Assembly (NCBI GenBank): GCA_017303805.1
Contig: JAFLBQ010000002.1
Span: 186,001 to 250,000, forward strand
Direction of reading: 5' to 3'
From: Cytophagales bacterium
GTDB lineage: Bacteria > Bacteroidota > Bacteroidia > Cytophagales > Cyclobacteriaceae
Length of the DNA stretch: 64,000 nucleotides
Part shown: piece by piece, positions 8,043 to 16,884 of the stretch
How positions within the stretch are numbered: the stretch's first letter is position 1
Layout of the letters: every line of letters begins with the position of its first letter
The notes under the pieces: model-generated
What the model was told of the DNA's origin: nothing
The model's input: the letters and a program-made list of their open reading frames with translations, nothing else
The model's database searches: none
Program-made: the position numbers and the translations under genes

Positions 8043-11000
8043 TTAGCGGATGGTAACTTGTTTAACCCCTTCTTGCCCATAGATTATTGGAAAATACATC
8101 CACTCGGCCCTTGCCGGGTTTAGGGTATAGCGGCCCGAAAAACGCGGCACCAACATAATGCGGTATTGATACTTGCCGGCTTTTAGTTCTTTACAGAAAA
8201 TAGTTGTTTGATGGAACTCATACTCACGGTGCACTTCTCCGTTGCGCCAATTTTGATTTTTACTCTCGTAGCTGCACCCAGCCGGGATCGGAACATTTAA
8301 CATCACGTACTCAGCATCTTTCTTTACCTCCACATCTACATACAACGTTACAGGCTTGCCTGCTTTCAGGTGTGTCGTATTCTCTGAAAAGGAAGTAGTA
8401 ACTACAAAGTCTTTTTCAGTACGTGCCGGAGCCGAATTCCAAAACTCGCGGTAAGCCGTAAAGTAAACTGGCGATACTCCTGTTTTACGAACCGTAATGG
8501 GTTGAGTTGAATTCACTACGGTATCGAACGGTAATTTTTTAGGCGCAAACTGAAAAGCATCCGTAAACGTAACCTCAGCGGCTGTGCTTTGGCCGGCCTG
8601 GTTCATCAAATCAGGAAGTAACGTTTCAATAATCAACGCGGATTGATACGTGTTGCGCCACGATTGCCCACGTTGCTCCAAAAAGAAATTCCGAATGCGT
8701 GTGAATTCTTCGGTTGGAGTCTTTTCATTTTTCAAAATACGATAGGCTATAACGGTTGCCATGGCATCGTTGTCAAACAAATGGGTGTTATCATCACCCC
8801 AATAGTAATTCCCTTTTAGTGTTTCCTTGCGGCTTTTTAGTAACTTCTCTTTAATGTCAGGAAACCCCTTGTGCTGCATCAATTCTGCCAGGCGCAACCA
8901 ACTGTACACCGATAAGTCTGTTTTAATGAGCGAATCGTACAGACCCTGCGGATCGACTTTTATAGTATGAGTGATCAAAAACTGATATGACAAGATTTGT
9001 TCGCGTAAGGGAAGCCCCGACAAAGCGGTTTGTAAAAAGCGAAGCACTCCTTCTTTGTCGTATCGGGTTTGATAGTTTTCTTTCTCGGCCAACTCCAACG
9101 CTTGCACTACGTGCAGGGTAATCCATGTTAACCCTTCACTCTTATTCCACCAGCCCCAGCCACCTGCTTCGTGTTGGTTTTCGGTTAGCTTTTTAATAAT
9201 ATGTTTAACCCAATCGTCATGCTTAAATTTTACTTTTCGAAAAGCAGTTATTTTCTTTTCGGCAAGCAACACACGAAGTTTAGATGCCAGTTGCTCGTTG
9301 CAATCGTATCGGTATCCTTTTACGGTTTCAATTTCCTCTAACAAAACATCCAGGGCATCGGTTTGGGCGCGCAGGTGCAATATTCCTGCCTCAGGTTGAA
9401 TTGTAAATGTGGTATCGGAACGGAGCGCTGCAAAAAACCCCTTGGCATCCTTAAGCCCTTTCTTGTGAACCGGTAATTTTCGGAGTTCACCATCTTCATA
9501 CTTATTCCGTTCAACAACATATTTTATATTGAGAGAATCAAACCCTGTAGCTACTAAAGCCAGGGTATCAATATGCGAGTTAGCAATGGTTAATGCAGCG
9601 GGGCTACTCGTAGCCGCGATTTGTAGGGTTCTGTTGATAGAAAGTGTATCGGGTGTGTAGTTTGTTATTTTTCCAATTGCCTGCGCACTATCGCCCACTA
9701 TTAAAAAATGTGGCGCTACAATTTGTGCCAGCAAAGGTTTGTACGATTGAGCTGTTGATATTGCGCTTCCACTTTGTTTTTTGCCGGTAGTAGCTAAAGC
9801 TTCAATTTTCCAGCCGGTTATATCATCGGGAAAGGTGGCTGTAAAAGTTGCCTTGCCTTTTTCATCTGTTAATAACTTCGGTTTCCAGAAAGCATAATCT
9901 CTAAAATTCTTACGAATGCTGTTTCCGGGTACACTTTCATCCGGAATTCCGGGAACAAAAGGTTCGGGCAGCGGTGCACCTAAAAGCTGTTGTATGGTAA
10001 TACCTTTTTTTGTGGAGAGCACAATCACCCCGCCCGCTGCTCTCGATCCATAGAGTTCTCTTCCTTCGTCACCGGTAAGCACCTCAATGGCTGTAAAAGA
10101 AGTGGGATCCAAATCTTTGTACGTAGCGGCATCAATTATTTTTCCATCAATAACAATTATAGGATTGCCGCCACTGTTAATAGTAGAGACACCCCGGATA
10201 AAGATTTGTTGATTTGAACCCGGGGCCGTGCCTACCTGTATTCCTGCCATTCTACCCATTAATTGCGACTGAACCGTTGCAACTGAATAGCTTAGCGCAC
10301 GCTTCTCCCTCGAAACTCCAAATCCTACTACAACCACTTCGCTAAGTTGGGTAACATCTGCCTCAAGATTAACATCAACCTGATTGCGACTTCCGGCATA
10401 CACTTCTTTTGTATGCAGGCCGATAAATGAAAACACAAGACTGCTATTAGGCGGTGCGTTAAGAGAGTATTCGCCATTGGCATCCGTAACGGTACCGTAA
10501 CTAGTACCCTTAACAATAACATTTACACCCGGTAGCGGGCTGCCATCATCTGTGGCAACTACCCGCCCCCGCACCATATTACCCGAATATGGGTAACTAT
10601 CGGTGCGTTGGGTGTAATAGGAAGTTCGCACTTCATTCATTTCTATCCTGCGCAATTGCTCCACGTAAGTATTCTTATCGTCCCACGACTTCAATGTGTG
10701 ATAAAGTTTTTCAGAGAATGAATCCCGGCTTTGAAGGGAGTCCGCTTGAAGAGTGATAAAAGTTTGGCCAAAAGGCGACAAGAAAAATTTTCCGGATCGC
10801 AGGTAGTGCAGGTCATTCATCAGCAAAATCAATTCATAGTGCGCGGCTGCCAGCTTGGGGATAGTGTTATTGTAAGCCGGATAAATGGAGTACTGATCGG
10901 GATTATCGAGATTGATAATAAATACAGCCAGGTACGCTTGCTGGGTTGCCGATGGTTGTATAAAGAACCTAAGCCTACTTGTTTCATTGCCTGTGATGTG

Positions 11001-13850
11001 GTGCGTGGTGTAGGCTACAAAATTTGGTCGCCTGATAGACTCTGGTACTACCCAGCGTTTCTGAATTTCTTTTGCCGTTATCACCCGGTCGTTAAAAGCG
11101 GGCGAAAAATCGAACCCGTAGTTCCGGTTGGTTACCGGCTTGCTAAGCGAGCGCTGCCGAATAAGGCCCGGTAAAAATTGATAGGAGAAGAATGGCTCGT
11201 AATTGAATGTAGTTTCTGAAGAATCAACCGTAACAAACTTTGTTAGTTGAGGATGGAGCGGCCCCACAACTTCGGCATAAGGGTAACCCCGTGCGCCCGA
11301 TGTGTTGAAAAGAAAATAATTATCGTATTGCCAGAGGTACGCACGCGCTTGATCGGTTGACCGATGAACAGTAATAAAGTACTTACTGATTTTCTGTTGC
11401 TCAAGGAGTACTTCCTTAGTATCATATTCCAATTTCACTACATCTGCGGGCAGATTCTTCAAATCGATAGCAAGTATCTGTTTGTTGTTCTTCTTGATAT
11501 CTATCGTAAAGGAGATTGCGTAGTTCTTAATTCGCATTCTTATTTGGTGAACTCCCGCCCCAACCCGAAACGAGTAAGGCTGAATGGTATTAACTGAAGA
11601 GTGAAAGACGGGCGTGTTATTGATATAAATTATGTTGGGCATAATAACCTGGCCATCTTCTACTGCATAAGGAGCTAGTTGCGTAATGGAATCTGCTGTT
11701 GGTTTTTCGTAGAGATAGCGGCCACCTGTGGGATACAAAAACTGATAAAACGAAATACTATCCAAGCCTAAAGTTTTATTCCATAACACCCAATCTAATT
11801 TTCTAACAGGTAAATCTTCAAACTCACCCGCGCTGAAAGAATTAAAAAAAGTCCGGCTCTTCTGCTTACGCGGATAGGAAGGCAACTGATTAAATGTTGC
11901 CTGCTTAAACTTTTTGGTGATTGCAAAAGCGGTGACATCGGCTTGGTTAACCGGCTTACCTTTAGCATCGGTAACATGAATTGTAAAATCGGTTGTCTGG
12001 CCTGGATATACCAACGGCTCGTGCAAAATAGAAACGTTCAGTTGTCGATCATTAAACGTTACGGCATAATTTTCTTGTTGGGTGGCTCCTGCCCACATAT
12101 ACTGTACGGACACCGTAAAAGACTCGCGCATGGCGGCTCTATCCTTAAAAATCAAAGTCGATTGACTCGCACTGCCGCGAACGAGCTGCCGGTTGTGTTG
12201 AAAGATCTGGTAATGGAATAAAATTTTACGTGGATTCTTGACGGATATCGTTACAGAGTCGGCCGTTCTGCTGGATAGCACTTCAAGGTTATCATAAGCA
12301 CTCATTTCAAGGGTTTCCCAATCAGGTGTGCCGCCCACCTCGTATTCTTTAACAAACGGATTTATTTTTTCACGATGCGGCAGACTTACTTCTTTAGTAA
12401 AGATTTCATCGCCCTCTTTATTAAAAGCTGTAAGCGCTACATTGCCTGCCAAAGTCTTTGGTAAAATCCACACGCTATCATTCTTTACCTCAAACCGAAC
12501 CGGCTTCTGTCTGTATTCGTATTGCAGATTTAGTTCTTTCGTGTGCCGTTCGTTATCTGCATTTATAAAAGCAATTACGGCTTTGTAGTTTAAAGAAGCA
12601 TTTGGAAAAATGTTTTCCGGCACCATAATTTTCGTTTCGCCTATTGCATCAAGCTTTTGAGTATAGAACCATAATGTATCCGCAATAAAAAGCCTGTTCT
12701 CATACACCTGGTTAACGGTAGCGGGTTGAATCAAAATCTCTGTTCGCACGTCATACAAAGGCATATCGTTAGAATCGGTGCCCTTCAGATAGAGCGTGGC
12801 TCCTTTTTCTTTGTCGTTAGTATCCGCGCGTGCAAAAAACTGGTTTGCTTTTAGTTCATACTGCTCATACCGAAACGATTTAGATAGCGCGGTTTTGTCA
12901 CGATGCTCCAATTGGATGCCCGGATTTGTATCCAATGAAAGTTTGAGGCTGTCGGTAAGCACAAATTCATATACGTAAGCCCCCGCCCGGTAGGGCGAAA
13001 CGGTTTTGAGCTTAAGGTTGGCCGCATTGCGCCCGTAGTTATAAAGCCATACCTCCAGTTCTTTTTTAACGGGCCGTCCTTTTTTAGTAGTGATGAATGC
13101 TTTCAGCTTGAGGGTGTCGCCTGGCTTAAACATGGGTTTATTAAAAACCATATAGCCGATCCAGTTTTTTTCATAACCCGGTTCAACCAGGCGCTTTGCT
13201 TTGTAAAAAATTCCGGGCGGAGAAATGTGGTTTCCCAGCGCAAGGTTTTTAACGGTGCGAATCGGATAGATTACCATCGAAGCAAGATGGTTTACTGGAA
13301 ATGTGCCCAACACCTTTTTGCCCATGCGCACAAAAAACGTGTTGTTCCGTCTTCTTTCAATTGCAAAAAATGAAGTGTGATGATCAAGCGTAACCGAAAC
13401 AATACCGTGGTGGTTCGATTTCTGAATGGTGTAGGCATTATCTTCTTTGCTGAAAGCTATCTTTTTGCCTTTGATTTTAACATCTGCATCGGTAACCGGT
13501 ATGCCAGAACGGTTGCTGACGGTAAAGAGTAAATCGCGCTGGTTATTTAGAATGTGTACGGAGGTGTTGTTGACAGAAACCAGTTCGTAATGCAGCTTAT
13601 CGCTCACAGTTTTCACCAACAGGTAATGGCCAACCGGTAGCTCATCCTGAAATTTGGCCGAATCGGTAGGATAAAGTGAATGCAGTGTATGGCAATATTC
13701 TATCGTTGGTTTTTGGTGTTCGTAAAGTCTCCGGGCTTCGGAAGGAGCGAGTTTGTAAACAAATGTAAAGTAGCTGCTGCGCCTGCTGGTGATAAGGTCT
13801 TGCCCACACACCGATGCAGAAATAAAAAGAAGCAGTAAAAATAATCTCAT
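8043..13850 (-). CDS. Alpha-2-macroglobulin family protein with internal CarboxypepD_reg-like and TonB-plug module
   Basis: A 1935-residue secreted protein. Order: signal peptide (about 1-16); macroglobulin beta domains including MG2 (KPGDTLKLKAF near residue 243); a carboxypeptidase-regulatory-like beta sandwich beginning near residue 1092 (GRVVATDDGSPLPGVNV); a SusC/RagA-type plug (LSEVVVVGFG, FIRGVSTINSGGNPIIVIDG) to about residue 1280; the A2M core (FPDDITGWK, W1347); a thioester-type CNEQ with Cys1517; and an alpha/alpha-toroid (TED) region. No TonB-dependent beta-barrel follows the plug, so this is not a transporter. Bacterial A2Ms are periplasmic protease traps with a thioester; the plug insertion is probably a ligand or partner-binding module. 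It follows the desulfhydrase gene by 17 bp on the same strand. Confidence 0.9.
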   Translation of the reverse strand: MRLFLLLLFISASVCGQDLITSRRSSYFTFVYKLAPSEARRLYEHQKPTIEYCHTLHSLYPTDSAKFQDELPVGHYLLVKTVSDKLHYELVSVNNTSVHILNNQRDLLFTVSNRSGIPVTDADVKIKGKKIAFSKEDNAYTIQKSNHHGIVSVTLDHHTSFFAIERRRNNTFFVRMGKKVLGTFPVNHLASMVIYPIRTVKNLALGNHISPPGIFYKAKRLVEPGYEKNWIGYMVFNKPMFKPGDTLKLKAFITTKKGRPVKKELEVWLYNYGRNAANLKLKTVSPYRAGAYVYEFVLTDSLKLSLDTNPGIQLEHRDKTALSKSFRYEQYELKANQFFARADTNDKEKGATLYLKGTDSNDMPLYDVRTEILIQPATVNQVYENRLFIADTLWFYTQKLDAIGETKIMVPENIFPNASLNYKAVIAFINADNERHTKELNLQYEYRQKPVRFEVKNDSVWILPKTLAGNVALTAFNKEGDEIFTKEVSLPHREKINPFVKEYEVGGTPDWETLEMSAYDNLEVLSSRTADSVTISVKNPRKILFHYQIFQHNRQLVRGSASQSTLIFKDRAAMRESFTVSVQYMWAGATQQENYAVTFNDRQLNVSILHEPLVYPGQTTDFTIHVTDAKGKPVNQADVTAFAITKKFKQATFNQLPSYPRKQKSRTFFNSFSAGEFEDLPVRKLDWVLWNKTLGLDSISFYQFLYPTGGRYLYEKPTADSITQLAPYAVEDGQVIMPNIIYINNTPVFHSSVNTIQPYSFRVGAGVHQIRMRIKNYAISFTIDIKKNNKQILAIDLKNLPADVVKLEYDTKEVLLEQQKISKYFITVHRSTDQARAYLWQYDNYFLFNTSGARGYPYAEVVGPLHPQLTKFVTVDSSETTFNYEPFFSYQFLPGLIRQRSLSKPVTNRNYGFDFSPAFNDRVITAKEIQKRWVVPESIRRPNFVAYTTHHITGNETSRLRFFIQPSATQQAYLAVFIINLDNPDQYSIYPAYNNTIPKLAAAHYELILLMNDLHYLRSGKFFLSPFGQTFITLQADSLQSRDSFSEKLYHTLKSWDDKNTYVEQLRRIEMNEVRTSYYTQRTDSYPYSGNMVRGRVVATDDGSPLPGVNVIVKGTSYGTVTDANGEYSLNAPPNSSLVFSFIGLHTKEVYAGSRNQVDVNLEADVTQLSEVVVVGFGVSREKRALSYSVATVQSQLMGRMAGIQVGTAPGSNQQIFIRGVSTINSGGNPIIVIDGKIIDAATYKDLDPTSFTAIEVLTGDEGRELYGSRAAGGVIVLSTKKGITIQQLLGAPLPEPFVPGIPDESVPGNSIRKNFRDYAFWKPKLLTDEKGKATFTATFPDDITGWKIEALATTGKKQSGSAISTAQSYKPLLAQIVAPHFLIVGDSAQAIGKITNYTPDTLSINRTLQIAATSSPAALTIANSHIDTLALVATGFDSLNIKYVVERNKYEDGELRKLPVHKKGLKDAKGFFAALRSDTTFTIQPEAGILHLRAQTDALDVLLEEIETVKGYRYDCNEQLASKLRVLLAEKKITAFRKVKFKHDDWVKHIIKKLTENQHEAGGWGWWNKSEGLTWITLHVVQALELAEKENYQTRYDKEGVLRFLQTALSGLPLREQILSYQFLITHTIKVDPQGLYDSLIKTDLSVYSWLRLAELMQHKGFPDIKEKLLKSRKETLKGNYYWGDDNTHLFDNDAMATVIAYRILKNEKTPTEEFTRIRNFFLEQRGQSWRNTYQSALIIETLLPDLMNQAGQSTAAEVTFTDAFQFAPKKLPFDTVVNSTQPITVRKTGVSPVYFTAYREFWNSAPARTEKDFVVTTSFSENTTHLKAGKPVTLYVDVEVKKDAEYVMLNVPIPAGCSYESKNQNWRNGEVHREYEFHQTTIFCKELKAGKYQYRIMLVPRFSGRYTLNPARAEWMYFPIIYGQEGVKQVTIR

Positions 13851-13867: not shown

Positions 13868-14773
13868 TTACCGAAAGCCATGCCCTTGTAATCCACCGGT
13901 GTGTACTGCCAGCACCGTACTGCCGGGTTTAAATTTTCCTTTCTCAACCATATCAAACACCCCCCACAAAAGTTTGGCGGTATAAACCGGGTCGAGCGGC
14001 AGTTGATGTTGTTCCTTCATCGTATTGATAAAGGCCAACAACTGCGGATTTGTTTTTGCATAACCTCCGTGGTGATAGGATGTTTCGATGTACCAATTTC
14101 CATAAACCCGATCCGAAAAATTTTTGAGAAGATTGTTGACTTCATCAACCAGAAATTCGCCATTCTTTAAAACAGAAATGCCCACTACCTGAGTTTGTTC
14201 ATTCATTCCGGCAATTAGTCCGGCTATTGTACCACCGGTGCCTACCGGCAAACACACATAGTCAAAAACAATTTCCTGTTGAAGTTGCTGTGCAAACTCC
14301 GCCACGCCTTTTATAGCTAATGCGTTCGTTCCTCCTTCCGGGATTAAGTAAAATTCGCCAAAGCGATCGTGTAAAGATTGGATGAATTCAATTGAGTTTT
14401 TATTTCGATACGCTTCGCGCGAAACGTAATGCAATTGCATGCCCCTGCTTTTCGCGAAAGCAAGCGTACCATTAAGCGGTAAAGTTTCTTCGCCCCGGAT
14501 TATTCCAATTGAGGTTAGGCCAAGTTCATGCGCAGCGGCAGCGGTTGCATAAATGTGATTAGAATATGCGCCACCAAACGTTAGCAGCGTGTGGTGCCCC
14601 TGTTGTTGGGCGGCTTCAAGATTATACTTCAGCTTCCACCACTTATTGCCCGAAATATGCGGGTGGTTTTGATCTTCGCGCTTGATGAACAGTTGGATGC
14701 CGGCCTTTTGCAAAATCAGAAGCTGCAAATCAATTACCGGTGCGTGCTGGTAAGGTAATACTCGCTCAGACAT
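13868..14773 (-). CDS. PLP-dependent ACC deaminase / D-cysteine desulfhydrase family protein
   Basis: A 301-residue fold-type II PLP enzyme. The family's PLP-binding lysine is seen as K44 in HISGNKWWKLK, and the glycine-rich phosphate loop appears as PVGTGGTIAGL. Relatives degrade D-cysteine to pyruvate, sulfide and ammonia or deaminate 1-aminocyclopropane-1-carboxylate; D-cysteine desulfhydrase-like activity is the safer guess here, because true ACC deaminase determinants cannot be confirmed by eye. The start overlaps the upstream winged-helix/PRTase gene by 8 nt, indicating translational coupling. The protein is slightly shorter than typical homologues of about 330 residues. Confidence 0.85.
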   Translation of the reverse strand: MSERVLPYQHAPVIDLQLLILQKAGIQLFIKREDQNHPHISGNKWWKLKYNLEAAQQQGHHTLLTFGGAYSNHIYATAAAAHELGLTSIGIIRGEETLPLNGTLAFAKSRGMQLHYVSREAYRNKNSIEFIQSLHDRFGEFYLIPEGGTNALAIKGVAEFAQQLQQEIVFDYVCLPVGTGGTIAGLIAGMNEQTQVVGISVLKNGEFLVDEVNNLLKNFSDRVYGNWYIETSYHHGGYAKTNPQLLAFINTMKEQHQLPLDPVYTAKLLWGVFDMVEKGKFKPGSTVLAVHTGGLQGHGFR

Positions 14774-15737
14774 CCGTAATCACATCAAATCCTTTAAAGC
14801 TACCAGTAATGGCCAATGCAGAAACTTTTTCAGCAATACCCTTCTTTTTAATCTTACCTGCAATTTCATTAACTGTTGCACCCGATCCCACCGCATCATC
14901 AATCAACAAAACATGATTAAAACTTCGCGTTTCAGGTACCGAAAAAGTTTGTTGCGCATTCGTAATGCGCTCTTCCAGTTTGCTTAATGACTTTTGAGGT
15001 ACTGGAATTATACCACTGGTTTTATTAAGCTTAATGGAAGGAAGTTTAAGCGCATAGTGTGTTTGCAGATATTTCATTAATTGTACCTCGCGCCTGATGG
15101 TTGGCGGTACAAATCCAACACCATCAGCTTTTAGCAACTCACATAGCTGAACAACGTTTGCTTTTGTTTCATTCACCAGCAGTTTCATCAGCAATTTACT
15201 CTGCCCTTGCTTGGCATAGTGAAGTAAGGTGCCAAGTCGGGTTTTACCAAACCGTTCTATGGCATAGAAATCCAGATAGTACAAGTTGTTCAAATGAATG
15301 GTATCGTAACCTTTCGTGGTTTTCAATTTTTCCATTCCATCTATAAACCCATCCGCATTGAAATAGCTTTTGTATTTCTGTTGTGTAGTAATGTATTCGC
15401 TTACTGTTTTTTCAAATGGAAGTTTTCGTTGCGAACACCAGATCTGAAATCCCTCTGCGCCCTCTCTGATTTCACCGGTTTCAGAAATAAGAATGAAGTT
15501 CTCGCGAAGAAATTTCTCCTTTTCGGATGGCAGTTCAGTTTTACTAACTACTCGCTCCGTTTTAAGTTGATAGACCGTTTTTGGGGGTCTGCCCACTCGC
15601 TGTACTAATCCAGAGTCTGTTAGCTCGCGTAAAGCAGCATGAACCATTTGTCTGGAAAGTTCAAGGCTATTAGCGAGTTCGTGTGCTGATAACGACCCGT
15701 GTGATTTCAGTAGATCAAGAATTCTTTCTTTTGTCAT
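14766..15737 (-). CDS. Winged-helix DNA-binding domain fused to a phosphoribosyltransferase-like domain
   Basis: A 323-residue fusion. Residues about 1-60 form a winged helix-turn-helix (GSLSAHELANSLELSRQMV as recognition unit, then the wing GLVQRVGRPPKTVYQL). A middle region (about 75-200) is of unknown fold. The C-terminus carries a PRPP-binding signature, VLLIDDAVGSGATVNE, with D280-D281, as in type I phosphoribosyltransferases and ComF-like proteins. The architecture recalls, but is not homologous in detail to, PurR of Bacillus, where a PRTase domain senses PRPP. It overlaps the downstream PLP enzyme by 8 nt. Its own start codon touches a 36-bp palindrome, a strong hint of autoregulation. 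Whether the PRTase domain is catalytic is unknown. Confidence 0.82.
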   Translation of the reverse strand: MTKERILDLLKSHGSLSAHELANSLELSRQMVHAALRELTDSGLVQRVGRPPKTVYQLKTERVVSKTELPSEKEKFLRENFILISETGEIREGAEGFQIWCSQRKLPFEKTVSEYITTQQKYKSYFNADGFIDGMEKLKTTKGYDTIHLNNLYYLDFYAIERFGKTRLGTLLHYAKQGQSKLLMKLLVNETKANVVQLCELLKADGVGFVPPTIRREVQLMKYLQTHYALKLPSIKLNKTSGIIPVPQKSLSKLEERITNAQQTFSVPETRSFNHVLLIDDAVGSGATVNEIAGKIKKKGIAEKVSALAITGSFKGFDVITDV

Positions 15738-15771
15738 TTTACACTTTACAGTAAACTGTAAAGTGTAAAAT
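15736..15771. promoter_or_regulatory. 36-bp near-perfect palindrome at the start of the winged-helix/PRTase gene
   Basis: Two 17-base arms (ATTTTACACTTTACAGT and its exact reverse complement) flank a central AA. The palindrome overlaps the ATG of the regulator gene (complement of 15735-15737). Each arm holds two TTTACA units. Its size and symmetry fit an operator for a dimeric or tetrameric winged-helix protein, most simply the adjacent regulator itself. Confidence 0.8.
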
Positions 15772-15795
15772 TGAACTATTAAAATTATAATTCAA
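15771..15795. repeat. Imperfect inverted repeat in the divergent gap
   Basis: Arms TTGAACTAT and ATAATTCAA pair at 8 of 9 positions around a short AT-rich centre (15780-15786). The element directly adjoins the 36-bp palindrome. It could be part of the divergent promoters or a weaker operator; AT-richness makes chance symmetry possible. Confidence 0.4.
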
Positions 15796-15804
15796 AGTAG
15801 GTTT

Positions 15805-15821
15805 TACTAAATAATTTAGTA
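15805..15821. promoter_or_regulatory. 17-bp perfect palindrome upstream of the radical SAM gene
   Basis: TACTAAAT, a central A, then ATTTAGTA: an exact palindrome ending 10 bp before the radical SAM ATG. It overlaps the next hairpin by four bases. The half-site TTACTAAAT recurs in the inverted repeat before the PadR gene at 42672-42730. Confidence 0.5.
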
Positions 15822-15847
15822 TTCTTGCTCAATGGAGCAAGAATACT
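15818..15847 (+). promoter_or_regulatory. Perfect 13-bp stem with the radical SAM start codon in its loop
   Basis: AGTATTCTTGCTC (15818-15830) pairs exactly with GAGCAAGAATACT (15835-15847). The four-base loop AATG holds the ATG at 15832-15834, and the right arm encodes residues 2-5 of the protein. In mRNA this would form a stable hairpin around the initiation site; in DNA it is a 30-bp palindrome that could be a second operator. Confidence 0.7.
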
Positions 15848-16884
15848 TTAAGGGTAGAGGCGCACAGATAAAGACCGAAAACCGGTTTTTGAAAGCACAG
15901 TATGTAACCGATCATATTGAAGGGCTTGACGAGCCGCTGTTGGAAACTCCCACCACCCAAATCTTTATCGAAAACGCCCGGCAGATTGTTAATGAAGTAA
16001 AGAGCCCGGACCTGAGTATGATGTATTCCATGAACCCATACCAGGGTTGCGAGCATGGTTGCATTTATTGTTATGCCCGCAATACGCATGAGTATTACGG
16101 CTTTAGTGCCGGATTGGATTTCGAAAGCAAGATCATCGTAAAGAAAAATGCAGCGGCCCTACTCGAAAAACATTTGCTCTCTAAAAATTGGAATGCGGTG
16201 CCCATTATGCTCAGCGGCAACACCGATTGCTACCAACCACAAGAGCGTAAATTTGAAATTACCCGCAGCCTGTTGAAGGTGTTTGCAAAGTACCGCCATC
16301 CGGTAGGCATAATTACTAAAAACAGTTTGGTGTTGCGCGACCTGGACTTGCTGCAAGATCTTGCCAGCGATAACCTGGTACACGTTTATTTATCCATTAC
16401 CACACTTAACGAAGATCTGAGACGCATTCTTGAGCCGCGCACCGCAAGTGCTGTGAAACGATTAAAAACATTAGAAGAACTTTCAAAAGCCGGAGTACCC
16501 ACCGGTATAATGAATGCCCCTATCATTCCCGGATTAAACCATCATGAAATTCCACAAATCTTAAAAGCTGCGGCTGATCATGGTGCACTAAATTGCGGCA
16601 TGACCGTAGTGCGGTTAAATGGTTCTATCAGAAAAATTTTTGAAGACTGGCTGCGCAAAAACTTTCCGGATCGGTTTGATAAAGTATGGAACCAGATCTG
16701 TTCATTCCATGGCGGAAGCGTAAGCGATTCGCAGTTTGGAAGGCGCATGGCTGGCGAGGGCACTATTGCCGAAGCTATTCATCAATTGTTTAGGGTCTCT
16801 AAAAAGAAGTACTTTGCAAACCGTGCTGCACCGCCTTATAACCTTACTAAATTCCGCAAAGGCGGCACCTTGTCCTTATTTTAA
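15832..16884 (+). CDS. PA0069-family radical SAM protein (SPL-like)
   Basis: A 350-residue radical S-adenosylmethionine protein. The [4Fe-4S] ligands are C73, C77 and C80 in CEHGCIYCYARNTHEY, the CX3CX2C arrangement. Sequence style (MNPYQGCEHGC, LSGNTDCYQPQE, ITKN, GLN near the C-terminal half) matches the PA0069/Rv2578c group, distantly related to spore photoproduct lyase. The reaction is not established. Transcribed divergently from the winged-helix/PRTase gene; the ATG sits in the loop of a perfect hairpin, so expression is probably controlled at this site. The next gene is 57 bp downstream. Confidence 0.9.
   Translation: MEQEYFKGRGAQIKTENRFLKAQYVTDHIEGLDEPLLETPTTQIFIENARQIVNEVKSPDLSMMYSMNPYQGCEHGCIYCYARNTHEYYGFSAGLDFESKIIVKKNAAALLEKHLLSKNWNAVPIMLSGNTDCYQPQERKFEITRSLLKVFAKYRHPVGIITKNSLVLRDLDLLQDLASDNLVHVYLSITTLNEDLRRILEPRTASAVKRLKTLEELSKAGVPTGIMNAPIIPGLNHHEIPQILKAAADHGALNCGMTVVRLNGSIRKIFEDWLRKNFPDRFDKVWNQICSFHGGSVSDSQFGRRMAGEGTIAEAIHQLFRVSKKKYFANRAAPPYNLTKFRKGGTLSLF

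What the first reader, a model, noticed from the sequence alone, without database searches (positions are those of the whole stretch)
15735..15847. A divergent gap made almost entirely of palindromes between a winged-helix/PRTase gene and a radical SAM gene
Four inverted repeats cover nearly all of 15736-15847: 36 bp (17-base arms, centre AA), an imperfect 25-bp one, a perfect 17-bp one, and a perfect 13-bp stem. Two of them include the start codons of the two divergent genes. One regulator acting on itself and on the radical SAM gene would explain this. I do not know of a described system with this pairing.
Basis: partly seen in the sequence, partly recalled or inferred. Interest (0 to 1): 0.78.

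Follow-up and report, generated by a model that had tools for sequence, protein, structure and literature searches.

The report
Two unrelated operators between divergent genes
The palindrome-filled gap holds two separate switches: a known DNA-damage (LexA) box for the radical SAM gene, and a new four-part operator by which an undescribed DNA-binding, phosphoribosyltransferase-like protein most likely controls only its own gene.

Summary
The palindromes are real; the 17-nt arms of the 36-bp repeat exceed all 1000 shuffles. They are not one system. (1) The 36-bp repeat is the operator of the wHTH-PRTase gene. It contains TTKAYnnTTKAYnRTMAAnnRTMAA, four pentamers in 7-bp steps. All 32 distinct Bacteroidota genomes examined with a homologue have it before that gene (28 exact, 4 with one mismatch), ending within 10 nt of the start codon in 28 of 32. 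Exact copies occur nowhere else in those assemblies. (2) The 17-bp palindrome is the published Bacteroidetes LexA box CTAA-N5-TTAG (PMC8565304, passages), found upstream of 19 of 29 radical SAM genes without the regulator and 17 of 21 dinB genes. (3) The 13-bp stem and imperfect 25-bp repeat lack comparative support. The gene pairing occurs in five of 32 genomes; the regulator was probably inserted between two older divergent genes. The protein is a ComF/RqlH-type PRTase with a winged helix; it keeps the PRPP loop, but an invariant Gly replaces the Asp linked to RqlH toxicity. Best reading: a PRPP/nucleotide-sensing autorepressor of an undescribed family. Binding, repression and ligand are inferred.

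The parts
14766..15737 (-). regulator gene, 323 aa: N-terminal winged helix (about 1-60), middle region, C-terminal ComF/RqlH-type PRTase domain
15736..15771 (.). 36-bp perfect inverted repeat over the regulator's start codon and 5' side
15738..15762 (-). core operator, exact match to TTKAYnnTTKAYnRTMAAnnRTMAA, directly before the start codon; a second register at 15745-15769 has two mismatches to the own-genome pattern
15805..15821 (.). 17-bp palindrome TA-CTAA-N5-TTAG-TA: Bacteroidetes LexA box of the radical SAM gene
15832..16884 (+). PA0069-family radical SAM gene, predicted SOS gene
15818..15847 (.). 13-nt stem, 4-nt loop over the radical SAM start codon; at the same offset 10, 9, 1 and 7 of 13 pairs in L008, L009, L010 and L011
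15771..15795 (.). imperfect 25-bp repeat, 9 of 12 positions paired; no comparative support found
13868..14773 (-). PLP-dependent enzyme gene (ACC deaminase / D-cysteine desulfhydrase type, under the cut-off of those models); its start overlaps the regulator's end, so probably co-transcribed here; the divergent neighbour of the radical SAM gene in relatives without the regulator between

Best explanation
The gap holds two independent control sites. Site 1 (15736-15771) is the operator of the wHTH-PRTase protein encoded at 14766-15737. Dimers of the protein most likely bind four TTKAY pentamers (readable as two overlapping TTKAY-N8-RTMAA palindromes shifted by 7 bp) that lie over the promoter -7 region and transcription start and up to the start codon, and so repress their own gene. 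The PRTase domain most likely senses PRPP or a nucleotide and tunes binding. Because the full operator occurs only at this gene, the output is the protein's own level, plus the probably co-transcribed PLP gene in this clade. Site 2 (15805-15821) is the LexA box of the radical SAM gene, left from the older PLP/radical SAM divergent pair into which the regulator gene was inserted. Shown by computation: operator conservation, placement and uniqueness, the LexA box and the different gene order in relatives. Inferred: insertion as the direction of change, binding, repression, ligand.
For: Operator: 40 sites in 32 of 32 distinct upstreams at one mismatch or less; its end lies 0-10 nt before the start codon in 28 of 32 and abuts it in 13. 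Exact pattern in whole genomes: 32 places in 28 of 32 distinct genomes, with numbers and sequences equal to those at the regulators; backwards control, 1 match. TAnnT stands directly before pentamer 1 in 23 of 40 sites, against a background of 289 of 7936 positions; 20 of 40 give the full TAnnTTTG -7 box (box recalled). Operator type tracks DNA-contact positions: among 247 protein columns, wing residue 51 ranks 1st and recognition-helix residues 34 and 31 rank 3rd and 9th for the share of TTG pentamers. Model pLDDT 88; the top Foldseek matches are H. pylori ComF and B. subtilis PurR with cPRPP, then PyrR; ShosT follows at E 0.0012. PRPP-loop residues D280, D281, S285, G286 and T288 are invariant in 32 of 32 rows. 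LexA box: CTAA-N5-TTAG upstream of 24 of 34 radical SAM genes (expected 0.13) and 17 of 21 dinB genes (expected 0.07); the published motif was bound in EMSAs and its regulon includes dinB and splB (PMC8565304, passages). Insertion: PLP and radical SAM genes lie in one divergent pair with no regulator in the locus in 7 of 29 regulator-less loci, the seven being L083-L089.
Against: No binding or expression data. The pattern was derived from the same upstreams, so its presence there is partly circular; its absence elsewhere is not. Most of the genomes are draft metagenome assemblies, so a missing site is not proof. At one mismatch, 30 of 70 genome matches lie outside the counted regulator upstreams, against 19 in the backwards control, so a few weak targets cannot be excluded. 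The window's own site lacks the strict TAnnT box. In 4 of 32 genomes the nearest site ends 24-38 nt before the start. For the other variable pentamer position (C or T) the top-ranked protein columns (102, 92) lie outside the winged helix; top-20 enrichment is modest, 8 and 6 of 20 against about 4 expected; relatedness is not corrected for. 10 of 29 regulator-less radical SAM genes lack CTAA-N5-TTAG within 110 nt. In the own genome alone the 17-bp pattern is not significant: 6 places at one mismatch or less against 12 in the backwards control. Foldseek TM-scores to PurR are low (0.21-0.28).
Confidence: 0.75

Rival explanations
1. One reading: one regulator binds all the palindromes and controls both itself and the radical SAM gene.
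For: Both genes share the gap, and the 36-bp site ends 60 bp before the radical SAM start codon. The pair persists in the window and four close loci.
Against: The 17-bp box does not match the operator and occurs at radical SAM and dinB genes without the regulator nearby. Within the fetched flanks the pair is absent from the other homologue loci. The 13-bp stem is not conserved. In G017 the two genes lie 41 kb apart.
Confidence: 0.08
2. The palindrome acts as an RNA hairpin beside the start codon (translation control or attenuation) rather than as a DNA operator.
For: It abuts the start codon in 13 of 32 homologues. Spacer positions 6-20 and 7-19 are complementary in 34 and 27 of 40 sites against 19.4 and 17.4 for independent columns; pentamer pairs 5-21 and 10-16 show a smaller excess, 34 against 28.4 and 24 against 18.6. 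Symmetry is expected of a dimer's DNA site too.
Against: Pentamer pairs 3-23 (21 of 40, 17.2 expected) and 12-14 (17 of 40, 18.5 expected) are near independence. In 23 of 40 sites a -7-like TAnnT directly precedes the operator, so the transcript would probably start inside it and lack the left arm (inference). No folding run was made.
Confidence: 0.05
3. A self-silenced toxin or defence effector: the PRTase half acts on nucleotides or DNA like RqlH/PsyrT/ShosT when the winged-helix half lets go of its own operator.
For: PADLOC PsyrT model matches residues 4-312 to 368-683 of 689, E 1e-16. ShosT structures are among the structural matches. RqlH toxicity maps to its PRTase domain (PMC4670107, passages). 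Patchy distribution.
Against: An invariant Gly (G284, 32 of 32 rows) aligns with the Asp of the PsyrT homologue L139 at the position that, by motif, is RqlH D663, whose change to Ala removed most of the toxicity. No DprA-family match lies on the regulator's contig in 30 of 32 genomes (one of them has no match at all), and in the other two it is 71 and 75 kb away; short contigs limit this (positions). No match in plasmids, phages or viral contigs.
Confidence: 0.15

Closest known systems
B. subtilis PurR (wHTH + PRTase-fold repressor that senses PRPP)
   Same: Order of domains, Foldseek match to the cPRPP complex 1p4a; degenerate PRTase used for regulation (recalled)
   Different: No sequence match to PurR in the PDB sequence searches; PRTase is of ComF/RqlH type; PurR has a purine regulon (recalled), whereas here exact operators occur only at the gene itself
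RqlH / PsyrT C-terminal half (RecQ-like helicase toxins with PRTase domain)
   Same: Winged helix plus PRTase aligned from residue 4 to 312 by the PADLOC model; VPPT and DDxxxSGaT motifs align in the profile comparison, which covers the PRTase part only
   Different: No helicase domain, no DprA partner found near it, Gly instead of the toxicity-linked Asp; G171 carries a full-length PsyrT-like gene with a DprA-like gene near it and the solo gene on another contig
ComF / GntX family
   Same: Weak NCBIfam matches to the C-terminus; best Foldseek hit is H. pylori ComF
   Different: Far under the curated cut-off (26.4 against 233.55 bits), extra winged helix
Bacteroidetes LexA network, CTAA-N5-TTAG (PMC8565304)
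   Same: The 17-bp palindrome is an exact instance; splB (radical SAM, COG1533) and dinB are named members
   Different: No difference found; that this radical SAM family is the paper's splB group was not checked
TAACTGA heptamer repeats (PMC4679880)
   Same: 7-bp units just upstream of start codons, patchy in Bacteroidetes (abstract and passages)
   Different: Different heptamer, direct repeats at many genes, no known reader; here an inverted arrangement at one gene

Membership tests
Bacteroidetes LexA box (CTAA-N5-TTAG) | exact motif with fixed 5-nt spacer in the promoter | tested here: met
   15805-15821; motif read
Bacteroidetes LexA box (CTAA-N5-TTAG) | same motif at other SOS genes of the lineage | tested here: met
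   17 of 21 dinB upstreams, 24 of 34 radical SAM upstreams
Bacteroidetes LexA box (CTAA-N5-TTAG) | bound by the lineage's S24-type LexA | not testable with these tools
   needs EMSA; presence of the S24 repressor gene in this genome was not searched
PurR-type PRTase-fold repressor | N-terminal winged helix and C-terminal PRTase fold | tested here: met
PurR-type PRTase-fold repressor | sequence homology to PurR | tested here: not met
   no PurR chain; no PurR model among the 25 families shown of 41
PurR-type PRTase-fold repressor | PRPP loop conserved | tested here: met
   D280, D281, S285, G286, T288 invariant in 32 of 32
PurR-type PRTase-fold repressor | binds PRPP and operator | not testable with these tools
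   bench
RqlH/PsyrT toxin | RecQ-like helicase domain | tested here: not met
   323 aa; no helicase among the Pfam families shown (25 of 43); the match is to model positions 368-683 only
RqlH/PsyrT toxin | adjacent DprA-like antitoxin | tested here: not met
   no DprA-family match on the regulator's contig in 30 of 32 genomes, 71 and 75 kb away in two (positions); some contigs are short
RqlH/PsyrT toxin | Asp in the PRPP loop needed for toxicity | tested here: not met
   invariant Gly; role of the Asp from PMC4670107 passages
ComF (TIGR00201) | score over the curated cut-off | tested here: not met
   26.4 against 233.55 bits

The most novel reading that the evidence does not exclude
A horizontally spread, one-gene regulatory unit: a RqlH-like winged-helix/PRTase protein whose only full operator in the genome is its own promoter. 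DNA-binding half and enzyme-or-sensor half in one chain would form a self-silenced switch that is thrown when PRPP or nucleotide pools change (for instance under phage attack or DNA uptake). The heptad operator may also bear on why tandem TTGACTA heptamers occur in at least one such genome (G177).
Probability: 0.17. Interest if true: 0.75.

Novelty: new variant of a known kind. Interest (0 to 1): 0.52.

Why it matters
It splits a puzzling gap into a known SOS box and a clear operator of a regulator family that I found no description of. It gives a precise 25-bp site, a candidate ligand class and a named strain that carries the gene (Ekhidna lutea DSM 19307, L017) for a direct test. It also suggests a case where a RqlH/ComF-type PRTase, usually discussed as toxin or competence factor, serves in transcription control, and where the full operator of a regulator spread over a phylum occurs at one gene only.

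Tried and rejected
Plasmids, phages and viral contigs were searched for the regulator: no match in the first two, and 54 pattern stretches but no relative in the third. A regulon was sought in the own genome with up to 3 mismatches. Three forward places resulted: the operator, its second register and one 3-mismatch site; the backwards control gave 1. Eight off-regulator one-mismatch sites of 30 were fetched: three lie inside ORFs, one in a heptamer tandem array, and the other four show no pattern that I could see. Shared neighbours: one search listed only gene families found in three or more loci. These were the syntenic groups (the window's clade; a Flavobacterium-like clade) and a lipoyl synthase-like ORF (named by eye) in L003/L023, which are one genome, and L024; families shared by two loci were not listed there. 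Nine paper searches listed no paper on this protein with this operator; that is the limit of the claim. A common regulator for both genes and an RNA hairpin were considered and rejected (see rivals). L039 (partial) was left out of the alignment and upstream counts; L004-L007 (a remnant and weak matches) too. L002 and L003 duplicate L012 and L023 and were dropped from the 32. A protein tree had 9 of 29 inner branches well supported and was not used for any claim.

Full report
1. Observation. A 17-nt arm was reached in 0 of 1000 dinucleotide shuffles of the gap, and the 13-nt arm in 0 of 1000 shuffles of the part without the 36-bp repeat. The 25-bp repeat pairs at 9 of 12 positions.

2. The genes. 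14766-15737 (-) encodes 323 aa with a winged helix (HTH_24 E 1.7e-8 and MarR models) and a C-terminus that weakly matches ComF/GntX and Pribosyltran models. The longest match in the four family libraries is the PADLOC PsyrT model, E 1e-16, residues 4-312 to model positions 368-683 of 689. No NCBIfam model shown (25 of 41) reaches its cut-off. A model from 32 homologues has mean pLDDT 88. Foldseek finds H. pylori ComF (E 1.1e-5), B. subtilis PurR with cPRPP (6.5e-5), PyrR (6.5e-4) and ShosT (1.2e-3), each with a TM-score under 0.4 on the query length. 15832-16884 (+) is a PA0069-family radical SAM protein (NF033668, 486.9 against 360 bits).

3. Homologues. A scan of a collection of 84,980 species with patterns from the window protein gave 32 loci with 50-93% identity; every title is Bacteroidota or a group inside it. 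The gene is rare and patchy. In the family 7 of 148 genomes matched, of which three were full-length, one a C-terminal remnant (G122) and three very weak. In the phylum 3 of 395 matched, one of them the G122 remnant. Within the fetched flanks the radical SAM gene is next door only in the window and in L008-L011.

4. The operator. Lining up the upstream regions by eye showed a shared design close to the start codon: TTKAYnnTTKAYnRTMAAnnRTMAA. Counting 32 distinct genomes, 28 upstreams hold it exactly and 32 at one mismatch or less. The nearest site ends 0-10 nt before the start codon in 28 of 32 (0 nt in 13) and 24-38 nt before it in four (start codons by my choice). There are 40 sites; seven genomes have more than one. 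In the whole assemblies (about 117 Mb by the listed sizes) the exact pattern occurs in 32 places in 28 of 32 genomes, the same in number and sequence as those at the regulators; the backwards control gives 1. At one mismatch there are 70 places, 40 at regulators and 30 elsewhere, against 19 in the control. One of the 30 lies about 1 kb from the operator in G167, probably just behind the regulator gene. TAnnT precedes pentamer 1 in 23 of 40 sites (3.6% background), giving TAnnTTTG in 20; the window's site is not among them; the Bacteroidetes -7 consensus is recalled. Two dimers on two 18-bp palindromes TTKAY-N8-RTMAA shifted by 7 bp is my inference.

5. Link between protein and site. For the share of TTG pentamers, wing residue 51 ranks 1st and helix residues 34 and 31 rank 3rd and 9th of 247 columns. 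The second variable position does not single out the winged helix (top columns 102 and 92). Relatedness is not corrected for. This is supportive, not proof.

6. The 17-bp palindrome. TA-CTAA-N5-TTAG-TA is an instance of the LexA motif of Bacteroidetes, CTAA-N5-TTAG, bound in EMSAs, with dinB, recA and splB in its regulon (PMC8565304, passages seen). In the own genome a one-mismatch copy of the longer pattern lies 11 bp before a DNA polymerase IV-like gene (gene named by sequence reading). That search found 6 forward places against 12 in its backwards control, so the pattern alone is not significant there; the comparative count is. CTAA-N5-TTAG is within 110 nt upstream of 24 of 34 radical SAM genes (0.13 expected from mononucleotide shuffles), including 19 of 29 with no regulator in the locus, and of 17 of 21 dinB genes (0.07 expected). 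Among 32 regulator upstreams it occurs only in the five that share the gap with the radical SAM gene.

7. Insertion. The radical SAM gene is in 64 of 98 family genomes at E 1e-100 or less. In 7 of 29 regulator-less loci, L083-L089, the PLP gene and the radical SAM gene form a divergent pair with no regulator between; the other 22 have no PLP match in the fetched 4 kb. G017 has that pair, with the regulator 41 kb away. So the regulator with its operator was most likely put between them; the PLP start now overlaps the regulator's end.

8. The other two repeats. At the same offset from the start codon the 13-nt stem pairs at 13, 10, 9, 1 and 7 of 13 positions in the window, L008, L009, L010 and L011. 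One arm is coding and the other runs into the LexA box. The 25-bp repeat has no comparative support that I found.

9. Mechanism. Most likely an autorepressor, with PRPP or a nucleotide as signal: DD...SGxT is invariant, and the fold neighbours PurR and PyrR are PRPP/nucleotide-responsive regulators (recalled). The toxin reading is weakened because invariant Gly284 aligns with the Asp of a PsyrT homologue at the place that, by its DIVD motif, is RqlH D663, whose change to Ala removed most of the toxicity (PMC4670107, passages). G171 holds a full-length PsyrT-like gene with a DprA-like gene about 2 kb away on one contig and the solo gene on another, so the solo protein is not a broken copy of that system. 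ShosTA background: PMC9122126 and PMC12593503, passages.

10. Verdict. The joint control of the radical SAM gene does not: half of the puzzle is a known SOS box, and the other half is a regulator family, undescribed as far as I found, with a single full operator.

Noticed in passing
window 8043-13850 (-): 1935-aa protein that combines alpha-2-macroglobulin domains (A2M, bMG10) with a carboxypeptidase-regulatory-like domain and a TonB receptor plug in the middle.
   Followed up: partly
L139, G171:C57:31028-33025 and C57:28570-29181: Full-length PsyrT-like helicase-PRTase gene with a DprA-like gene about 2 kb away, in a genome that also carries the solo regulator on contig C43.
   Followed up: partly
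L143 around 1516-1616 (G177:C123): Intergenic tandem array of TTGACTA-like heptamers in a genome whose regulator operator is made of similar heptamers; reminiscent of TAACTGA arrays (PMC4679880).
   Followed up: no
window 14769-14804 (-), protein residues 312-323: Nearly invariant C-terminal tail GSFKGFDVITDV that the model leaves with pLDDT under 50 from residue 315 on; a partner or ligand may order it.
   Followed up: no
L010:4677-5093: PIN-domain gene between regulator and PLP gene in one close relative; no PLP overlap there.
   Followed up: no
G122:C1:2164014-2164298 (L004/L081): C-terminal remnant of the regulator gene, suggesting loss of the gene in that genome.
   Followed up: no
L116/L118 (G000:C10:114078-114094): LexA-type box 11 bp before a DNA polymerase IV-like gene in the window's own genome.
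   Followed up: yes
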